From: Calocera cornea HHB12733
Lineage: Eukaryota > Basidiomycota > Dacrymycetes > Dacrymycetales > Dacrymycetaceae
Direction of reading: 5' to 3'
DNA length: 64,000 bases
NCBI GenBank assembly: GCA_001632435.1
Contig: KV423956.1
Location: 60,865 to 124,864 of the forward strand
The first letter of the stretch is position 1; every line of letters starts with the position of its first letter. The position numbers and the translations under genes are program-made. Shown here one piece after another: positions 6,896 to 14,189 of the stretch. The notes under the pieces were generated by a model. That model did not search any database and was not told where the DNA came from. It saw only the letters and a list, made by a program, of their open reading frames with translations.

Positions 6896-6901
6896 CAAAA
6901 C
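6896..6901. repeat. Target-site duplication, left copy (CAAAAC)
   Basis: CAAAAC immediately precedes the left terminal inverted repeat. The same six bases directly follow the right one (14184-14189). It is a perfect 6-bp direct repeat at the exact edges. Confidence 0.88.
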
Positions 6902-6924
6902 TACGGTAGCCATCCGCGGACAGC
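6902..6924 (+). repeat. Left terminal inverted repeat (23 bp)
   Basis: All 23 bases are the exact reverse complement of 14161-14183. The outermost bases are TACGGTAGCC and the innermost CGGACAGC. A degenerate inverted copy of the same sequence (GCTGTCCG...GCTACC) lies just inside at 6953-6972. Confidence 0.95.
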
Positions 6925-7179
6925 TGGAAGGGTCGCCTCATTTGGGGTCCGAGCTGTCCGTCAAGAGCTACCACCCACTGACTATCGTGGACAGCAAGCT
7001 TGTGACAATGTCGGCGATTAGACAAGCGAGATAACAGACTGGCTCCACTTTAAACGGGCTCAAAAATGCAAACCTTATTCCACTGTTTACTGGTCGTGAC
7101 CAGTATCTTGTGTCATATCGGCGAGCAGATGAGATTGGAACGGCAGGCACTGGTCTCTGAGCAAATGAACGGGTGACTC

Positions 7180-7246
7180 GAGTTGGACGTCTATCTAGGC
7201 AACAAGTAGAACGAGCGACAGGAGTTGAGCATCTATCTAGGCGACA
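7180..7246 (+). repeat. Subterminal pair of 25-bp direct repeats in the transposon
   Basis: 7180-7204 and 7222-7246 agree at 21 of 25 positions and share the core TCTATCTAGGC. They lie between the left end and the alpha-kinase stop codon, in non-coding element DNA. They could be subterminal transposase-binding sites. Confidence 0.6.
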
Positions 7247-7254
7247 TGAAACTT

Positions 7255-9942
7255 TCAGTTGACTGGTTGCAGACCAGTCGATGTACCTGCTTTCCGTTCC
7301 TCTAGGCGTGTGCTTCGACGTTCAGGCTGGGGAGGCAAAGTTTTTGCGCGTGCCTTTTTCGGATGAGAACCAGTCACTGGTTGAGCCACTGACAGACCGA
7401 GGATCTTGTCAATTACATCATTGGGCGAAGGGAGAGCTTCTGGTGAGGCACTTCGTTTGTCTATGAAGAGAGGCGCTTCTTTGCTGGTCTCGCAGAGAGA
7501 TTCGAGCTCAAAACCAGTACAGAACTCGTTGCACTGGTGCAGCAAGGGGAACTGCTCAAACGAGCTGCTCAAGTTCCCATCGCCAAAGATAGGACCCAGT
7601 TTCCTACAGACCAGTATTGTCAGCTACATCGGAGAGCGAGAAAGAAAGACAAACGGATGCGTAAGAATCTGGGGATCGCTGAGCATAGTCAGAGAACCTG
7701 ATTGCCTGTCAGTGTTAACCAGTATTCGTTACTGGTTGACTGGCTTACCTTGATAGTCCGAAATGATTGCCAGCCCACCAGTCTTCACATACTGCACATG
7801 TTGGCAGAATGCAAGATAGCGCCCAACAGTCCCAGCCGGACCCTCCGAGACACAGGGCACCGGTGAAGAGTTATTGATGAACTTGATGAACGAGCTGCCC
7901 TTGCTACCCGGTCTGATTTGAACCTTCGGACCCGTAACCAGCTCCTCGATCAAGACAACCAGTCCGCTGCGTTCGTTCCCGCTCTCTTGACCATGCTGGA
8001 AAAGCCCACCAAGGACAAAGCATGTCTCGGGCAGTTCTAGTTTGCTGGCAGCCGATTTCGGGTTTTCTGAGAGAAACTTGGAAGCAAATGACTGGGCGAG
8101 CTCGTGCAGACTGGTTGCCCAGTAAAGCAGATTTGCTTCCTGCTCGAGAAAGCGATTTTCGTCCTCGACACCAAAGCGGAGACGTGGTCCACCTGGGGTC
8201 TCACGGAAATATCGACGCTTTGCAGCTACCGGGGTACGATGGGAGACCAGTATTGGCTGGGTTGGCAAGTCCTTCCAGGCGACAGGGAACTCTGAGAGTG
8301 TCAAGTACGCTGGATGTGCTGTCTTGAACGTGCCTGGCGGTCCAAGCATTTTCTTGGCTTGCTCGTCCATTCGAAGGACAGCATCACAGCCGAGGACCTC
8401 ATAGTTGATCTGGAGCTGTTTGCAGCTGGCGACCAGTCTATGCCATTCGACCTTAGGAATTGGTAAGAATAGGCCATGAGCCGTGAATTGCTTTGCTGCG
8501 AGCAGGTCAGGCATAATTTGAGAGTGCAAAGACGTTCAGGGCATACTGGTCAAATTTTTTGGGGCCTTCTTCTGGTTCGAGGAGAGCAAGGCCATGCAAA
8601 TTGCATCTTGATCAGGGCTTTCGTCCACAGCCTGTGTGGGACGCTGTTTCCTTGGACGAGGAGGAGAGTTGGCATCAACCAGTGCACGCTGGTTGATATA
8701 TCAGTTTTCACTCTAAAATTGCATGCCAAGGACGTACTTTGCCATGAGAACCGGACACTGGTCCTGCTTGTTCAAGGAGAGGATTTCGACCAGTATCTGT
8801 CTTTGCCTGAGCTGTTGGATTCACTGATGCAAGTCGCAGATCCGGTGGAATTCCCTCTGCCTGTTGAGATACAAGTTAGCGACCAGTATTTGCTCCGCTG
8901 TCATGAGACATACTGCCGCATCCATCCACAGACTGACGCTTGGCCAGACCTCTTTCTTGATGACCAGGAAGACGTCAATCTGCTTATTTGGGATCCAGAC
9001 ACGTGTTGTAACACCGTGCTTTATCTGCTCTTTAAAGCACTGGTCGTACATTGGCGGAATCGAAGGGTTTTTCTCCAGATCGGCCAGTCCCGGACCACAC
9101 AGCTCAAAATCAGACAGCTCAAATGGGTACTGGGCTGTATCACGCTGAATCTTGCGATAAAGCTCGGAAAAGATGTATTGATTGAGGTCCGCCGGTAGGA
9201 GAGCAGCTGGAACACCCAGGAGGCGTTCCACAGTGCTCTAAAAACTTCATTAGCGGTGCAAAGTGTTTAAGCAGGTGATAAGATGCACCCCAAGCTGCCG
9301 TGGCTTCCCGCTCCCATCCACAAGATACTGGACGCACATATTCACTCTGACCTGTTCTGCTCGGGGCTGGGAAACTGCCATTTTGACCAGTGCTCGCTGT
9401 TGATGATAAAGCGAGTGATTCGGATTGTACCCAAGCAGTGGAAGTCCAGGATTTGCGCTATGCATGATGATTGGCTTTTGCTCAGTTGTAGGCAGTGCAC
9501 CATAGGGAGTGTGAAATTGCAGGCCGACAGCCTGAACTGGAGATTTACCGCCTGATAGTATTAAGCAACCAGTGAATAGAGCGGAAAAGCAACAGGACTC
9601 ACCTGGATACTGGTTTCGTTGGGCACTACTTGTCTGCTGGCGAATTTCTGCAACTGCATCACGGGCGAAAAAATTCTGAGGTTGGACTTGAGCATGGTGT
9701 TCGGTAATAGCAGGGCGGCGAATTGTTTGCGGCTTGTTCAGATAGTGGTCAAAGCAGGGCAGGCAGACAATTTGAGGGGGCAGCGAATTTCCGTGACTGT
9801 CTCGGGGCTTGATTGTTTGCCAGGGCTGGTCAGGCTTGATTTGAGCAGAACAGCTCAATTGGCTACACCGGCCTCCTTCCCAGGTAGTGACCAGTGGGGA
9901 TATATCATCCATCAGGACAAGTACGATGTAGGTGTTTTGCAA
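7255..9942 (-). CDS. Alpha-type (MHCK/eEF2K-like) protein kinase carried by the transposon
   Basis: A multi-exon minus-strand gene. The N-terminal part (9942 to about 9250) holds paired Cys residues (GGRCSQLSC; VCLPCFDHYL) like a small zinc-binding region. A middle exon (9231 to about 8823) reads STVERLLGVPAALLPADLNQ onward. The kinase domain runs from about 8480 down: RSGLVVLIEELVTG, SFIKFINNSSPVPC, LAFCQHVQYVKTGGLAIISD, YQG, then across an intron DPQILTHP, and after another intron GPIFGDGNLSSSFEQFPLLH and QCNEFC. These match the alpha-kinase family's D-x-Q-G, DPQI and GxGN elements and the zinc-holding H...CNxxC. The family phosphorylates Ser/Thr, often on helical substrates. All core motifs are present, so activity is plausible. 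The stop is at 7255-7257. It starts 170 bp or less from the integrase start, head to head. Exon joins at 8520-8820 are uncertain. Confidence 0.82.
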
Positions 9943-10110
9943 GCAAAGTTGTGTGCACGTAATAGGTAAAAATTTGGTCTGTTGATTCTTGCCTGCTCCA
10001 GTCCAATGCTGTGCATTTTACTGGTCTGCCGACGGACAGGTGGACAGGTGTATTTGTCAGCCATGCAGACCCTGCTCTTACGTGGTGTGTTCAACTCTGC
10101 CCTTCAGACT

Positions 10111-12005
10111 ATGGCAGGTCGACATCCCAACCAGTGGGGGGATGCAGTACCGGACAGCATACTTCGTCCACTGGTTGAGAAGTATTATCAATTTGGGTTT
10201 GGCGACAAAAAAATCCTGGAAGTTATCTGCAAGGATCTGGACTTGGAATCGCATAATTGGACCCTCTCGTGCGTGCCTCCCAACCAGTCTTTACTGGTTA
10301 TATAACTGATTACATTGCAAAGCACAAAGACAATACAGCGTCGTCGAAAGGAATGGGGCCTGCTTTCAGTCAAACAGCAGGCCCACTCGATAGAATCTAT
10401 TGCATCACTGGTGGATCAGATTCGTGTGCACTCAGCAAATCGATTGGGCGCAAAATCGATTCGAGATCATCTGCGGGAGGAGAATATACTGGTCTCCCGG
10501 TATGTGCAAAGCAGCGACCAGTATGACATCAGCTTACTACTGGATGCAGACCGCTCATTCAGAACTATCTTCAAATTGTTGATGCAGCTGGGAACAAGCA
10601 GCGACGTGCAAGAAAATTTAAGCGTGCTGTTCACTGGTCGACTGGTCCCCACGAGCGATGGTCTGCAGACCAACACGATAAATGGCAACGCTTTGGGCTT
10701 TTCCTCCTTGTTGGACTAGACAATTTCTCGAATGCGGTCCTATGGCTGAAGGTCTGGTGGACAAACTCGAATCCAAGACTTATCGCCAGTTTTTACCTTG
10801 AAGCAGCCAGTAGTCTTGGGGGTACGCAATTGCCAGATCACTTTGGAGCAATGCTAACTGGTCTCAGGCATACCCCTCCTTACCCAGAGCGACCCAGGCA
10901 CTGAAAATCACGGCATGGCAAATGCTCAGACACTTCTCCGTCAGTTGCTTGACCCTACACTGGCCGGTACCCTGCAGCACCAGTGGATGCGTGGGCATGC
11001 AAATATCAAGCCCGAAATTTTTTGGTCCAAGCTACGAAGGCAGTGGTCTGAAGGGTGGGAGGCAGTATTCGAGGATGGACTGACAGAGGGCTGGTATGAT
11101 CCAGAGGTGGTTTTAGAGCGGTGCGTCAACCAGTGAATACTGGTCATTCAGGACTGACTCTTGCCTAGTTTGCTGTTTCGTTGGCTTGCTGTACCAATGA
11201 TTCAAGCTGATCTGGATCGCTTTGCACGAATCCACAACACCAGTCGACCCCGTAGTGATCGCCGAAAAGCTATGCCCGCAGAAATTCCGATGGTCCTCCT
11301 CGAATGTCCAAATGACTATGGGCCCTTCCGAGACTACAAAATTACGGTCGCAAGTGAACATTTGAAAATTGCAGCTGAAGCATACGCCCCTCCAGAGCAC
11401 GATGTATTCTTACTGGTCCCTCCGCAGTTTGAGCATGAAGCAACTGATCATTATTTTGGTGTGTAACATCGCATACTGGTCATATTCAAGGCTCTGATTT
11501 TTCATGACCAGCCATTGGTTGTCCCGAGGTCAATCGAAGCTCCTTTTGGGGAATTTACACTGCTATACTTCAGCGACTCGAGGCTCTTCCTCCACATGAG
11601 GCCGATGTGATATCAAAAGAGGCAAATCGACATATGGCACGCGAAGATGTTGTGCAACATGAATTTGTTGCAATCCTCCCAGGCAACGCTGCCCGAGGGC
11701 CAGCAAATGTCGGAATGGGCAATCGGTTGTTTGAGACTGGTCAACCAGTCGAAGAATCGCAGAGTGATGAAGTTTCTGAAGAGGGAGATGAGGCAAACCT
11801 ACCGGAGTTTACAATGACACAGTTTGCACAGTGAGATACTGGTCGTCGCAGATAATCAAATATGTTGTTATTTTATTTACAACCAGTATCTACTTGTGTT
11901 TACTGGTCTAAGAATGGCAGCCATGAGTGTGAGGATGAGGAAGAGGACGAAGATGAGGAAGAGGACGAAGATGAGGAAGAGGATGAAGATGAGGAAGAGG
12001 ACGAA

Positions 12006-12048
<43 letters not shown>

Positions 12049-12086
12049 GCGATAATGATGATGACAAGGAGGACGAAGATGGATGA
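10111..12086 (+). CDS. DDE integrase/transposase of the 7.3-kb transposon
   Basis: About seven exons join without a lesion. The N-terminal part reads DSILRPLVEKYYQFGFGDKK, then across an intron TIQRRRKEWGLLSVKQQAHS, a helix-turn-helix-like region. An intron at about 10499-10550 leads to NYLQIVDAAGNKQRRARKFK. The catalytic core is WSADQHDKWQRFGLF (Asp at 10668-10670), TQSDPGTENHG (Asp at 10891-10893, after a 46-nt intron 10822-10867) and NIKPEIFWS (Glu at 11014-11016). This is a D..D(40)E retrovirus-integrase-type fold, matching a transposase family widespread in Agaricomycetes that I recall being labelled a fungal integrase core domain. The C-terminal half ends in a Glu/Asp-only tail with a GAT-repeat tract (about 11930-12086). 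The start is chosen at 10111 (MAGRHPNQWG); Met 10063 or 9982 in the same frame are alternatives. Confidence 0.85.
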
Positions 12087-12261
12087 TGATGACAATAATT
12101 AGAATACTGGTCGATCATGTTGACTGCGACCACAACCAGTCGCAGAAGCAGAAGCCGAGACAAATACTGGTCGTCGATCGTGTTTCAATTTTACCAGGGC
12201 ACAAACAAATCCATTCATCATTTCACAGCAAGTACAAACAGTAAAACCAGTGAATACTGGT

Positions 12262-13978
12262 CTAGAAAGTAAAGCCCGCAAAGGAATCCCGCCCCCCGGT
12301 CCAAGGGTGGTCGGGCATATCATTGGGCATGGCCTCCTTGAGCAAAGCGCGCAACTTTACTGACTGGTTTGGCGGGACGCGCCTCCAGTCGAAGTCTTGC
12401 GCTTGCATGGCGAACTCGAGTAGGTCGTACGCTTCTTGCGCGGCCGAGGTGAGCTTGTACCACGGAAACTTGAGTTCCGCGTACGAATCTTGCATCCGCT
12501 TGTTTTGAAGAAGCATAACCAGAAGCTGGCCCTTGCGGAGAGTTTCGGTGCGGTTGACGTAGTCGGCATGCGCGGCGGTCGTCATGTAAGTGTAAGCGTC
12601 GTCCATCCGCTTACACTTGTCCAAGTCGTCCGGCCGGGCTGGGGAACCTCCGTCGGGAACACGGCCCTGCATACTGGTTAGCAAGACCAGTAAGTACGAA
12701 AATTGGCATACCAGTTTGCCTAGGAGGCGGTTCGCCTCCTCGTGGAACATCTCGCCGAGGACTTCGCAGTCGTCCAGCAGCTCGCGAATAAAGGGAAGGG
12801 CGAACGGAAGGCCTTCGCCCCGGAAGTAGAGCACAAGGTTGTTGAGCCGGGTTTCCTGTGATTCGCGCGCGTAGTTCAAGTCGCTGATTGTAGGCATCTG
12901 TATGAATAGTTAGCTAATTAGATTCTTACTGGTCGATTAGAAAACTTACCGGATGCGCGGCAGCGTACACCTCCTGCGCACCGGGCCGCACGACAAGCGG
13001 GAGACGACCAGTAAGGAGGCCGTCGAACATCGCCCGATTCATTTGAATCGGGGGCTGGTTGCTGACCAGCTGGTCAATATCCTCCGAGAACTTCTTGTGC
13101 CGCTCCTTCTGGGCTTGATCATCCTCGCGAAACCTCTCGCCAACCAGTAGCTCGTCGCGCAACACCTTGGCTTGCATGAAATTTTGAAACCACGCGGCGT
13201 TGCGCAATTCCGGCGTGATGTGGATGGTCGGGGACGGCGAGCGATCAGAGGATGAGCGAGGGGAGGACGGCGTAGACTGGGAAGAAGGGGGATTGGGGCC
13301 GGGCGTATACTGGTTGACGACCAGTATGTCCTCCTCGGGCGGGTCCTCGGGCTCATTGTTGTCGAGCTCATTTGGAAGGCGCCAGATGCGCTTCATGAAC
13401 TTGGTCCGAACGCGGCGCGCAGGGAGGAACTCGGGCACATGGCCGGCCGGGAAATGAATCGGGCTGACGGGCGCAGCCAGTGGGATCCGGTCTCGGATAC
13501 GCTGATTGAGAAGAAAATCGAGCTCTACGTACGAAGTTAGTATACTGGTCACGCAGATGGAAGTATGGGTGCACCTCGATACTGGCAATCCTTATCCGGA
13601 TGGGAATGGTAGTAGCAACATACTAACCAGTAGGATCAGATACTGGTCGACGTCTGAAAGGGGAAACATACCATAGAGGAGCTGGCCCGGATAGTCGCTA
13701 TTCGCCGGCGTACGCAGCGTTATGCACGCCCGCAGGTGCCAGCAAAGGTTTTGGCGGTGGTCGTCCAAAAAGCCCACGTTGATAACATGCAGATGCGGCC
13801 AGGAAAGACGGTTGCCGATAGGGAGGGGGCCGCCGGGCTTGTCAGGTTCGAGGTCATGCTCGGTACTGCGCACAAGATCCTCGCGACTGGTCATGTACCT
13901 GGACCGGTGGGCGGCCACAGGGAGAGTGGGAGGCCGGCCGGGCAGGGGGAGCATAGCCAGGGGAGTGGAGGAAGCCAT
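12262..13978 (-). CDS. Unknown protein encoded by the transposon
   Basis: Four or more exons join on the minus strand. Exon 1 starts MASSTPLAMLPLPGRPPTLP at 13978 and runs to the PGQLLYG donor near 13668. A later exon carries ELDFLLNQRIRDRIPLAAPV, a Ser/Pro-rich linker, and MNRAMFDGLLTGRLPLVVRP. An intron with the ACCAGT motif leads to MPTISDLNYARESQETRLNN. A further intron at about 12669-12720 leads to the C-terminus ending DSFAGFTF. The product is about 480 residues, helical and charged with a disordered centre, and shows no domain I recognise. It could be an accessory transposition factor, a DNA-binding partner of the hexamer array, or captured cargo. Clean splice phases argue that it is maintained. 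It lies convergent to the integrase, with about 175 bp between the stop codons. Confidence 0.7.
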
Positions 13979-14160
13979 AGAGACCAGTGAGACCAGTAAG
14001 TTGAGACGGGAGGGGCCGACCAGTAAGTTTCAAGGCGAGGGAGACGACCGTCGAGAGCGAAAGACCATTGTCAATGACGATGTGCTGGCACCGTCGTGTC
14101 AACACATGTTTGAGTCCGCACGGAGCCAATCTAATCGCCGAGGGGCAGGACCCCTAACTT

Positions 14161-14183
14161 GCTGTCCGCGGATGGCTACCGTA
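14161..14183 (-). repeat. Right terminal inverted repeat (23 bp)
   Basis: Exact reverse complement of 6902-6924. It reads inward-to-outward GCTGTCCGCGG to CTACCGTA. Confidence 0.95.
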
Positions 14184-14189
14184 CAAAAC
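14184..14189. repeat. Target-site duplication, right copy (CAAAAC)
   Basis: Identical to 6896-6901. Together they define the insertion point. Confidence 0.88.

What the first reader, a model, noticed from the sequence alone, without database searches (positions are those of the whole stretch)
7089..14024. About 70 copies of ACTGGT/ACCAGT spread through the whole element
The hexamer occurs roughly every 100 bp throughout exons, introns and spacers, about 20 times above chance, but not near the ends and not enriched outside the element. Many copies are inverted pairs, including two identical 16-mers ACCAGTGAATACTGGT. Such saturation, even in coding sequence, suggests selection for a motif: recognition by an element protein, a self-identity tag, a chromatin or silencing signal, or a replication or packaging feature. 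Subterminal motif clusters are known in some transposons; a whole-element array is unusual.
Basis: seen in the sequence. Interest (0 to 1): 0.93.

Follow-up and report, generated by a model that had tools for sequence, protein, structure and literature searches.

The report
Transposons saturated with private address motifs
A 7.3-kb jumping gene in the jelly fungus Calocera cornea carries one six-letter DNA word 70 times, even inside its genes, while four related elements in the same genome are filled with other words, which likely lets a protein made by each element find only its own kind and would shield it from host silencing.

Summary
Confirmed and extended. ACTGGT/ACCAGT occurs 70 times in one 7,282-bp element (3.4 expected) and 14 times in the other 56.7 kb of the window. 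The element is an IS3EU DNA transposon of Calocera cornea: 23-bp perfect terminal repeats TACGG..CCGTA, 6-bp duplication CAAAAC, integrase-type transposase, an alpha-kinase-like gene in opposite orientation, and a fast-evolving third gene.

Of 15 elements of this family examined in the genome (window's included), five are saturated, in different dialects: TACTGGTCG here, TG[TC]TGGTCGT (C5), TCCTGGTC (C13 and C155, sisters in the tree), GCCGGC (C142). C26 is borderline; nine show no convincing word. The word lies on both strands, is densest in introns (20-28/kb), exceeds synonymous-shuffle expectation in coding sequence, spares the outer ~160 bp, and arises by substitution. All five saturated elements carry the third gene beside the transposase.

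Best reading: an element-encoded protein, likely the third gene's product, binds its own dialect along the whole element, as Arabidopsis VANC does, and would counter silencing. Binding and function are untested. A Harbinger-type element and a Helitron here also carry dense words; five of six other Helitrons do not.

The parts
6902..14183 (.). IS3EU DNA transposon, 7,282 bp
   Evidence: inverted repeats, gene content, duplication read from the sequence
6896..6901 (.). left copy of the 6-bp target-site duplication CAAAAC
   Evidence: sequence
14184..14189 (.). right copy of the 6-bp target-site duplication CAAAAC
   Evidence: sequence
6902..6924 (+). left terminal inverted repeat TACGGTAGCCATCCGCGGACAGC
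   Evidence: 23 of 23 complementary
14161..14183 (-). right terminal inverted repeat
7089..14024 (.). array of 70 copies of ACTGGT/ACCAGT (extended ATACTGGTCG), 35 per strand
10063..11834 (+). transposase, six exons: 10063-10268, 10323-10499, 10550-10821, 10868-11120, 11169-11458, 11512-11834; Pfam rva_4 integrase core
   Evidence: open after splicing; PF24764, E 2.8e-9
7255..9912 (-). alpha-kinase-like gene, only partly modelled (homology-supported exons 9912-9603, 9551-9289, 9237-8914, 8484-7749; further exons to about 7420)
   Evidence: Pfam Alpha_kinase 19.3 bits, below the 21.3 cut-off; homology to elements C5 and C142
12262..13978 (-). third gene, four exons (13978-13672, 13524-12950, 12897-12712, 12666-12262), 490 aa; candidate reader of the motif
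   Evidence: open after splicing; NCBI CALCODRAFT_540535; relatives beside the transposase in all five saturated elements

Best explanation
The hexamer array is the private word of one IS3EU transposon, with different words in related elements, and is likely an array of binding sites for an element-encoded protein that would coat the element end to end and protect it from host silencing. Shown here: the element, the saturation, the dialects, the excess over synonymous shuffles in coding sequence, the higher density in introns, the free ends, and the presence of a fast-evolving third gene in all five saturated elements. A protein bound about every 100 bp would keep chromatin open or DNA unmethylated along the whole element; as word and protein drift together, each protein would serve only its own family and not wake competing elements.
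For: Five of 15 family elements are saturated, with words exclusive to element or sister pair: C43 70 ACTGGT and 2 CCTGGT, C13 36 CCTGGT and 1 ACTGGT; C142 56 GCCGGC against 6.3 expected. C13 and C155 share a word and are sisters in the transposase tree, support 0.987, although only 67% identical in DNA over the aligned stretch. Both strands are used equally in C43, which argues for DNA and not RNA. Introns hold 17 copies in 693 bp. Spacing in the three whole elements is more even than random (CV p 0.039, 0.0002, 0.027). The third gene lies beside the transposase in 5 of 5 saturated elements and is the most divergent of the three proteins: C43 to C5 33% against 69% for the transposase core and 41-49% for kinase pieces. 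The host has DNA-methylase matches above cut-off.
Against: No binding or chromatin data. The third protein has no recognised domain in the held Pfam or PDB match below E 0.3, and its structure model failed (pLDDT 33). Third-gene relatives also occur away from any transposase of this family that one search found (for example C41:164-166k, C72:134k, C219:33k), and C295, which has no convincing word, has one about 7 kb from its transposase. The association rests on one clade of one genome. C26 has a weak third-gene hit (E 0.05) and only a borderline word. A Harbinger-type element and a Helitron carry dense words although no third gene was found near them. Evenness of spacing is not seen in the two partial elements.
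Confidence: 0.5

Rival explanations
1. The words are binding sites used in transposition itself: a transposase or accessory protein pairs, loops or compacts the element so that its ends meet, as TNPA does through subterminal repeats of En/Spm (recalled).
For: Element-specific words; inverted close pairs suit a dimer; the transposase, too, differs between elements.
Against: The outer 150-190 bp are free of the word and the interior, coding exons included, is covered evenly, which end pairing does not need; nine family members with related transposases lack a convincing word.
Confidence: 0.17
2. The words are a repression or immunity tag: the element's own protein, or a host factor, recognises dense copies to silence the family or to prevent insertion into itself.
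For: The tag is private and covers the whole element.
Against: Selection would have to keep hundreds of bases for a trait that lowers copy number; no homology of the third protein to any repressor was found.
Confidence: 0.13
3. Molecular drive: copies richer in the word are preferentially transmitted, as with DNA uptake sequences of Neisseria and Haemophilus, which also lie on both strands, in genes, in species dialects (recalled); the word would be read during horizontal transfer or replication.
For: Dense words with dialects; positions turn over while density stays (6 of 9 element pairs share no more sites than chance).
Against: No transfer or replication machinery was seen in the element; the uptake parallel is bacterial; no relative of the transposase turned up in viral contigs, a narrow test.
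Confidence: 0.1
4. Artefact of composition, codon usage or insertion of tiny repeats.
For: Two loci outside this family show raised hexamers: L057 (ATGTAC 11 against 0.6 in 3 kb, not understood) and the gypsy-type L063 (weak).
Against: Resampling and synonymous shuffles do not reach it for the transposase; at 8 of 11 transposase-exon sites the relatives covering the site align without gaps, so copies were not inserted; 21 window chunks reach at most z 7.1 and 27 other loci at most 10.5, against 13.4-24.2 in C43, C5, C13 and C155.
Confidence: 0.03

Closest known systems
VANDAL transposons with VANC anti-silencing proteins, Arabidopsis (PMC5735166; passages and Discussion seen)
   Same: One short word per family, different between related families (YAGTATTAY for VANC21, AGTTGTCC/AC for VANC6); effect over whole elements; element-encoded protein with variable regions.
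   Different: VANC words form tandem repeats in non-coding parts and are absent from the tested coding probes; here they are dispersed over the whole element, coding exons included. Superfamily, host kingdom and accessory protein differ; no binding shown here.
IS3EU transposons of fungi (PMC12730594, PMC10045372; passages seen)
   Same: 6-bp duplications, TAYGG..CCRTA ends, integrase-like transposase and alpha-kinase gene in opposite orientations.
   Different: Those described in PMC12730594 carry a TET/JBP gene between the two; here there is none and a different third gene lies beyond the transposase. No private words are mentioned in the passages seen.
Subterminal repeats of En/Spm bound by TNPA (recalled, not checked)
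   Same: Short repeated words read by an element protein.
   Different: Confined to the ends; here the ends are free and the interior is filled.
DNA uptake sequences of Neisseria and Haemophilus (recalled, not checked)
   Same: Dense words on both strands, in genes, with dialects between relatives.
   Different: Whole bacterial genomes at roughly one per kb, for DNA uptake; here single transposons at 5-12 per kb.

Membership tests
IS3EU superfamily | 6-bp target-site duplication | tested here: met
   CAAAAC on both sides; also CAATCC for C5 and CGTTGG for C142
IS3EU superfamily | TA..TA termini, in fungi TAYGG..CCRTA | tested here: met
   TACGG..CCGTA; definition from passages
IS3EU superfamily | integrase-like DDE transposase | tested here: met
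   Pfam rva_4 integrase core, E 2.8e-9, above cut-off; no tree with Repbase IS3EU proteins was made
IS3EU superfamily | alpha-kinase gene opposite to the transposase (as in TET-bearing fungal families) | tested here: met
   opposite strand; Alpha_kinase E 0.0013, 19.3 bits against a cut-off of 21.3, so below the curated threshold
VANDAL/VANC system | MuDR-type VANDAL transposase | tested here: not met
   the transposase matches rva_4 only
VANDAL/VANC system | family-specific short word enriched in the element | tested here: met
[quoted passage not shown]
   dispersed, close pairs no more frequent than random; also in exons
VANDAL/VANC system | VANC-type protein | tested here: inconclusive
   no Pfam family found for the third protein; not compared with a VANC sequence
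VANDAL/VANC system | element protein binds the word and removes methylation from the element | not testable with these tools
   needs binding and bisulfite data

The most novel reading that the evidence does not exclude
Fungal transposons write a private address into their whole sequence, introns and codons included, about every 100 bp; related elements differ by a single letter of the address (TACTGGTC against TCCTGGTC), and a co-evolving element protein reads it so that each family lifts silencing from itself alone. Other superfamilies in the same genome (a Harbinger-type element, a Helitron) have evolved or borrowed the same strategy.
Probability: 0.38. Interest if true: 0.93.

Novelty: new variant of a known kind. 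Interest (0 to 1): 0.87.

Why it matters
How a transposon escapes silencing without waking its rivals is known, to my knowledge, from essentially one plant system. Here a single 32-Mb fungal genome offers at least four natural word dialects, two of them one base apart, with word-free members of the same family as built-in controls. If a reader protein is confirmed, the set makes the co-evolution of DNA-binding specificity with kilobases of target directly testable, shows selection on DNA words strong enough to shape codons and introns, and may yield new sequence-specific chromatin tools. Even with another mechanism, whole-element saturation in dialects needs an explanation.

Tried and rejected
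Composition or chance: rejected. RNA or splicing signal: unlikely, because the word is equally frequent on both strands. Insertion of tiny repeats: rejected for 8 of 11 transposase-exon sites, where relatives that cover the site align without gaps. A general property of transposons in this genome: rejected; nine of 15 family elements have no convincing word and five of six newly fetched Helitron coding stretches have none, the sixth (C140) having a moderate GCGCAA excess, 12 against 2.9. Weak candidates in word-free elements (C82 CAGCTGG 9 against 0.7; C275 and C295 TCCAGGA 6 and 5 against 0.45) do not clear the 7-mer controls, which reach z 9.8 in the window and 12.4 elsewhere. Structure of the third protein: the two-sequence AlphaFold model is unusable (pLDDT 33), so no fold search was run. 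Relatives of the third protein outside C. cornea: none in two searches, which need shared 5-residue words. Relatives of the transposase in viral contigs: none. An EM motif finder ran away for most elements and was replaced by k-mer counts. Shared sites between elements: 3 of 9 pairs exceed chance (C13-C155 p 0.0035, C43-C5 p 0.013, C155-C26 p 0.025), 6 do not. Earlier reports of whole-transposon words: searches, result lists and passages of three papers only; nothing beyond VANDAL seen.

Rows dropped: low-complexity k-mers (two letters or simple repeats) were left out of the best-word scans, which also hid GCCGGC, so C142 was tested apart. L051, L052 and L058, which lie in family elements, were left out of the 27 comparison loci; one search left out L054, L060, L063, L069 and L073 as well. 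The comparison loci were fetched because each holds one ATACTGGTCG, so they are not a random sample. Of about 22 well-matched family loci, 15 were read; the other seven were not.
Full report
WHAT IS THERE. The hexamer ACTGGT/ACCAGT occurs 70 times between 7089 and 14024, 35 times on each strand, where a first-order model expects 3.4. The rest of the window has 14 copies in 56.7 kb. The consensus extends to about ATACTGGTCG. In the 32.1-Mb genome that 10-mer occurs 66 times, 8 of them here; the reversed-pattern control gives 62.

THE ELEMENT. The array lies inside a DNA transposon at 6902-14183 with 23-bp perfect inverted repeats and CAAAAC on each side. It encodes a six-exon transposase (10063-11834, open after splicing; Pfam rva_4), an alpha-kinase-like gene on the other strand (first modelled exon from 9912; 19.3 bits, below Pfam's cut-off of 21.3; only partly modelled) and a four-exon third gene (13978 down to 12262). 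The third protein is NCBI's CALCODRAFT_540535 of Calocera cornea HHB12733, on a contig of 208,050 bases, the length of contig C43 here. [quoted passage not shown] PMC10045372, passages).

RELATIVES CARRY OTHER WORDS. A search with the transposase found about 22 well-matched loci in the genome; 15, the window's included, were read. Five are saturated. C43 (the window): ACTGGT, 70 against 3.4. C5, a 7,529-bp element with a CAATCC duplication: CGACCA, 55 copies; 56 against 4.5 expected in the surrounding 8.6 kb. C13: CCTGGT, 36 against 2.2 in 3.0 kb. C155: CCTGGT, 20 against 1.8 in 2.5 kb. C142, 12,254 bp with a CGTTGG duplication: GCCGGC, 56 against 6.3. C26 is borderline (best word z 7.8; GCTAGT 9 and GCTGGT 10 in 2.5 kb). 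C275, C295, C82, C18, C10, C127, C65, C260 and C48 show no convincing word in 2.5 kb around the transposase.

CONTROLS. The best-hexamer z is at most 7.1 in 21 window chunks and at most 10.5 in 27 other loci, against 19.8-24.2 (C43), 15.2-17.4 (C5), 21.8 (C13) and 13.4 (C155) in stretches of similar size. For GCCGGC, the five chunks of C142 give z 5.8-13.0 while the 21 window chunks reach 2.7 and the 27 loci 1.3; over 12.25 kb C142 has z 19.8 and four host stretches of that length at most 9.4. Five of the 27 loci exceed z 9: L073, L057, L054, L063 and L060; four are transposons, discussed below, and L057 is unexplained.

DIALECTS. The words are largely exclusive: C43 has 2 CCTGGT, C13 has 1 ACTGGT; C155 has 5 ACTGGT and C5 has 14, so exclusivity is not absolute. 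Lined up they read TACTGGTCG (C43), TCCTGGTC (C13, C155) and TG[TC]TGGTCGT (C5), so C43 and C13/C155 differ at one base. C13 and C155 are sisters in the transposase tree (0.987).

WHERE THE WORDS SIT. Transposase, third-gene and modelled kinase exons hold 7.2, 4.8 and 5.5 per kb; their introns 27.9, 24.6 and 20.2 (17 copies in 693 bp of 12 introns); the remaining DNA 13.3. Against 2,000 synonymous-codon shuffles the transposase has 11 copies (mean 1.8, maximum 7), the third gene 6 (mean 0.9, maximum 6), and the four kinase exons 2, 1, 1 and 5 (means 0.45, 0.38, 0.65, 0.62; maxima 3, 1, 2, 4). The excess is thus clear for the transposase and one kinase exon, likely for the third gene, and not shown for three kinase exons. 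The outer 187 and 164 bp are free. Of C43's bases 98.8% lie within 150 bp of a copy; gaps are more even than random in C43, C5 and C142 (CV p 0.039, 0.0002, 0.027), not in the partial C13 and C155. Close neighbours are inverted in 35 of 44 cases.

HOW THEY EVOLVE. At 8 of 11 transposase-exon sites the relatives that cover the site align without gaps, so copies there arose by substitution. Sites at matching places: C13-C155 6 shared against 0.84 expected (p 0.0035), C43-C5 4 against 0.91 (p 0.013), C155-C26 3 against 0.68 (p 0.025); six other pairs are at chance. Density is kept while positions turn over. At one intron site (10283) four elements each have a variant of their own: C43 ACCAGT, C5 GACCAAC, C155 GACCAGG, C26 ACTAGC; this is one chosen example, not a test.

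THE CANDIDATE READER. Relatives of the third gene lie beside the transposase in all five saturated elements. In C26 a weak hit (E 0.05) lies at the expected place and strand, and a stronger third-gene copy lies 8-10 kb away; 451 bases of the latter hold 5 GCTRGT. For the nine elements without a word, neither search listed a third-gene hit within 6 kb of the transposase; C295 has one about 7 kb away. The third protein diverges fastest: C43-C5 33%, against 69% for the transposase core and 41-49% for kinase pieces. Against this: no known domain, no significant PDB match, a failed model, third-gene copies without a detected transposase of this family nearby, and a correlation that rests largely on one clade.

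MECHANISM. Arabidopsis VANC21 binds YAGTATTAY and VANC6 targets carry AGTTGTCC/AC; both strip methylation from whole elements of their own spectrum (PMC5735166, passages and Discussion). The fungal pattern fits that logic: one word per family, end-to-end coverage, a fast accessory gene, and a host with DNA-methylase matches (two TET/JBP hits below cut-off). It differs in superfamily, in dispersion instead of tandem repeats, and in entering exons. I call it VANC-like in working, not a VANC system. Roles in transposition, self-repression or molecular drive remain open; confidence in the anti-silencing reading is 0.5.

BEYOND THE FAMILY. Two near-identical Harbinger-type copies (C8, C16; DDE_Tnp_4) have 11 and 12 GCTGGTC against 0.6-0.7 expected in 3 kb; both were fetched because they hold one ATACTGGTCG. 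A genome scan for inverted pairs of T[ACG]CTGGT gave 61 sites (control 54); among the 50 listed, places with three or more within 10 kb are C8, C13, C16, C43 and a regularly spaced trio on C52. The longest open frame of a Helitron-type element (C36) has 15 TGCGCA in 3,006 bp against 3.0 by synonymous shuffle (0 of 2000), while five of six other Helitrons lack a comparable word. Of eight short elements with related ends, three (L030, L032, L034) have 11-13 ATTCCG against 0.7-0.9 and five do not.

Noticed in passing
L054 and L060 (C8:259332-262341, C16:89216-92225): Near-identical Harbinger-type elements (DDE_Tnp_4) with 11-12 copies of GCTGGTC per 3 kb against 0.6-0.7 expected.
   Followed up: partly
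L073 (C36:186509-189518): Helitron-type 1,002-codon open frame with 15 palindromic TGCGCA, 3.0 by synonymous shuffle; C140 has a milder GCGCAA excess, five other Helitrons nothing comparable.
   Followed up: partly
L030, L032, L034, L043, L044: Short elements or stretches with related terminal repeats, rich in ATTCCG/GGAATAG; five others with the same ends (L029, L031, L033, L035, L036) lack it.
   Followed up: partly
L057 (C10:118935-121944): ATGTAC 11 times against 0.6 expected in a stretch that looks like host genes; unexplained.
   Followed up: no
C13:29410-29911: A second, weak third-gene match (E 0.001-0.08) near the far end of the C13 element.
   Followed up: no
C26:239-241k, C41:164-166k, C72:134k, C219:33k, C19, C81, C279: Third-gene relatives with no transposase of this family listed nearby.
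   Followed up: no
L058:1-400 (C13 third gene): The acidic linker of the C13 third protein has repeated DQEE and DLV pieces encoded over copies of the word, as if the word shapes the protein.
   Followed up: no
11937-12090: GAT/GAA-rich simple tract encoding an acidic run just after the transposase stop.
   Followed up: no
C177:23357-28991 and C104:36870-37217: DNA-methylase matches; on C177 probably two genes in a row.
   Followed up: no
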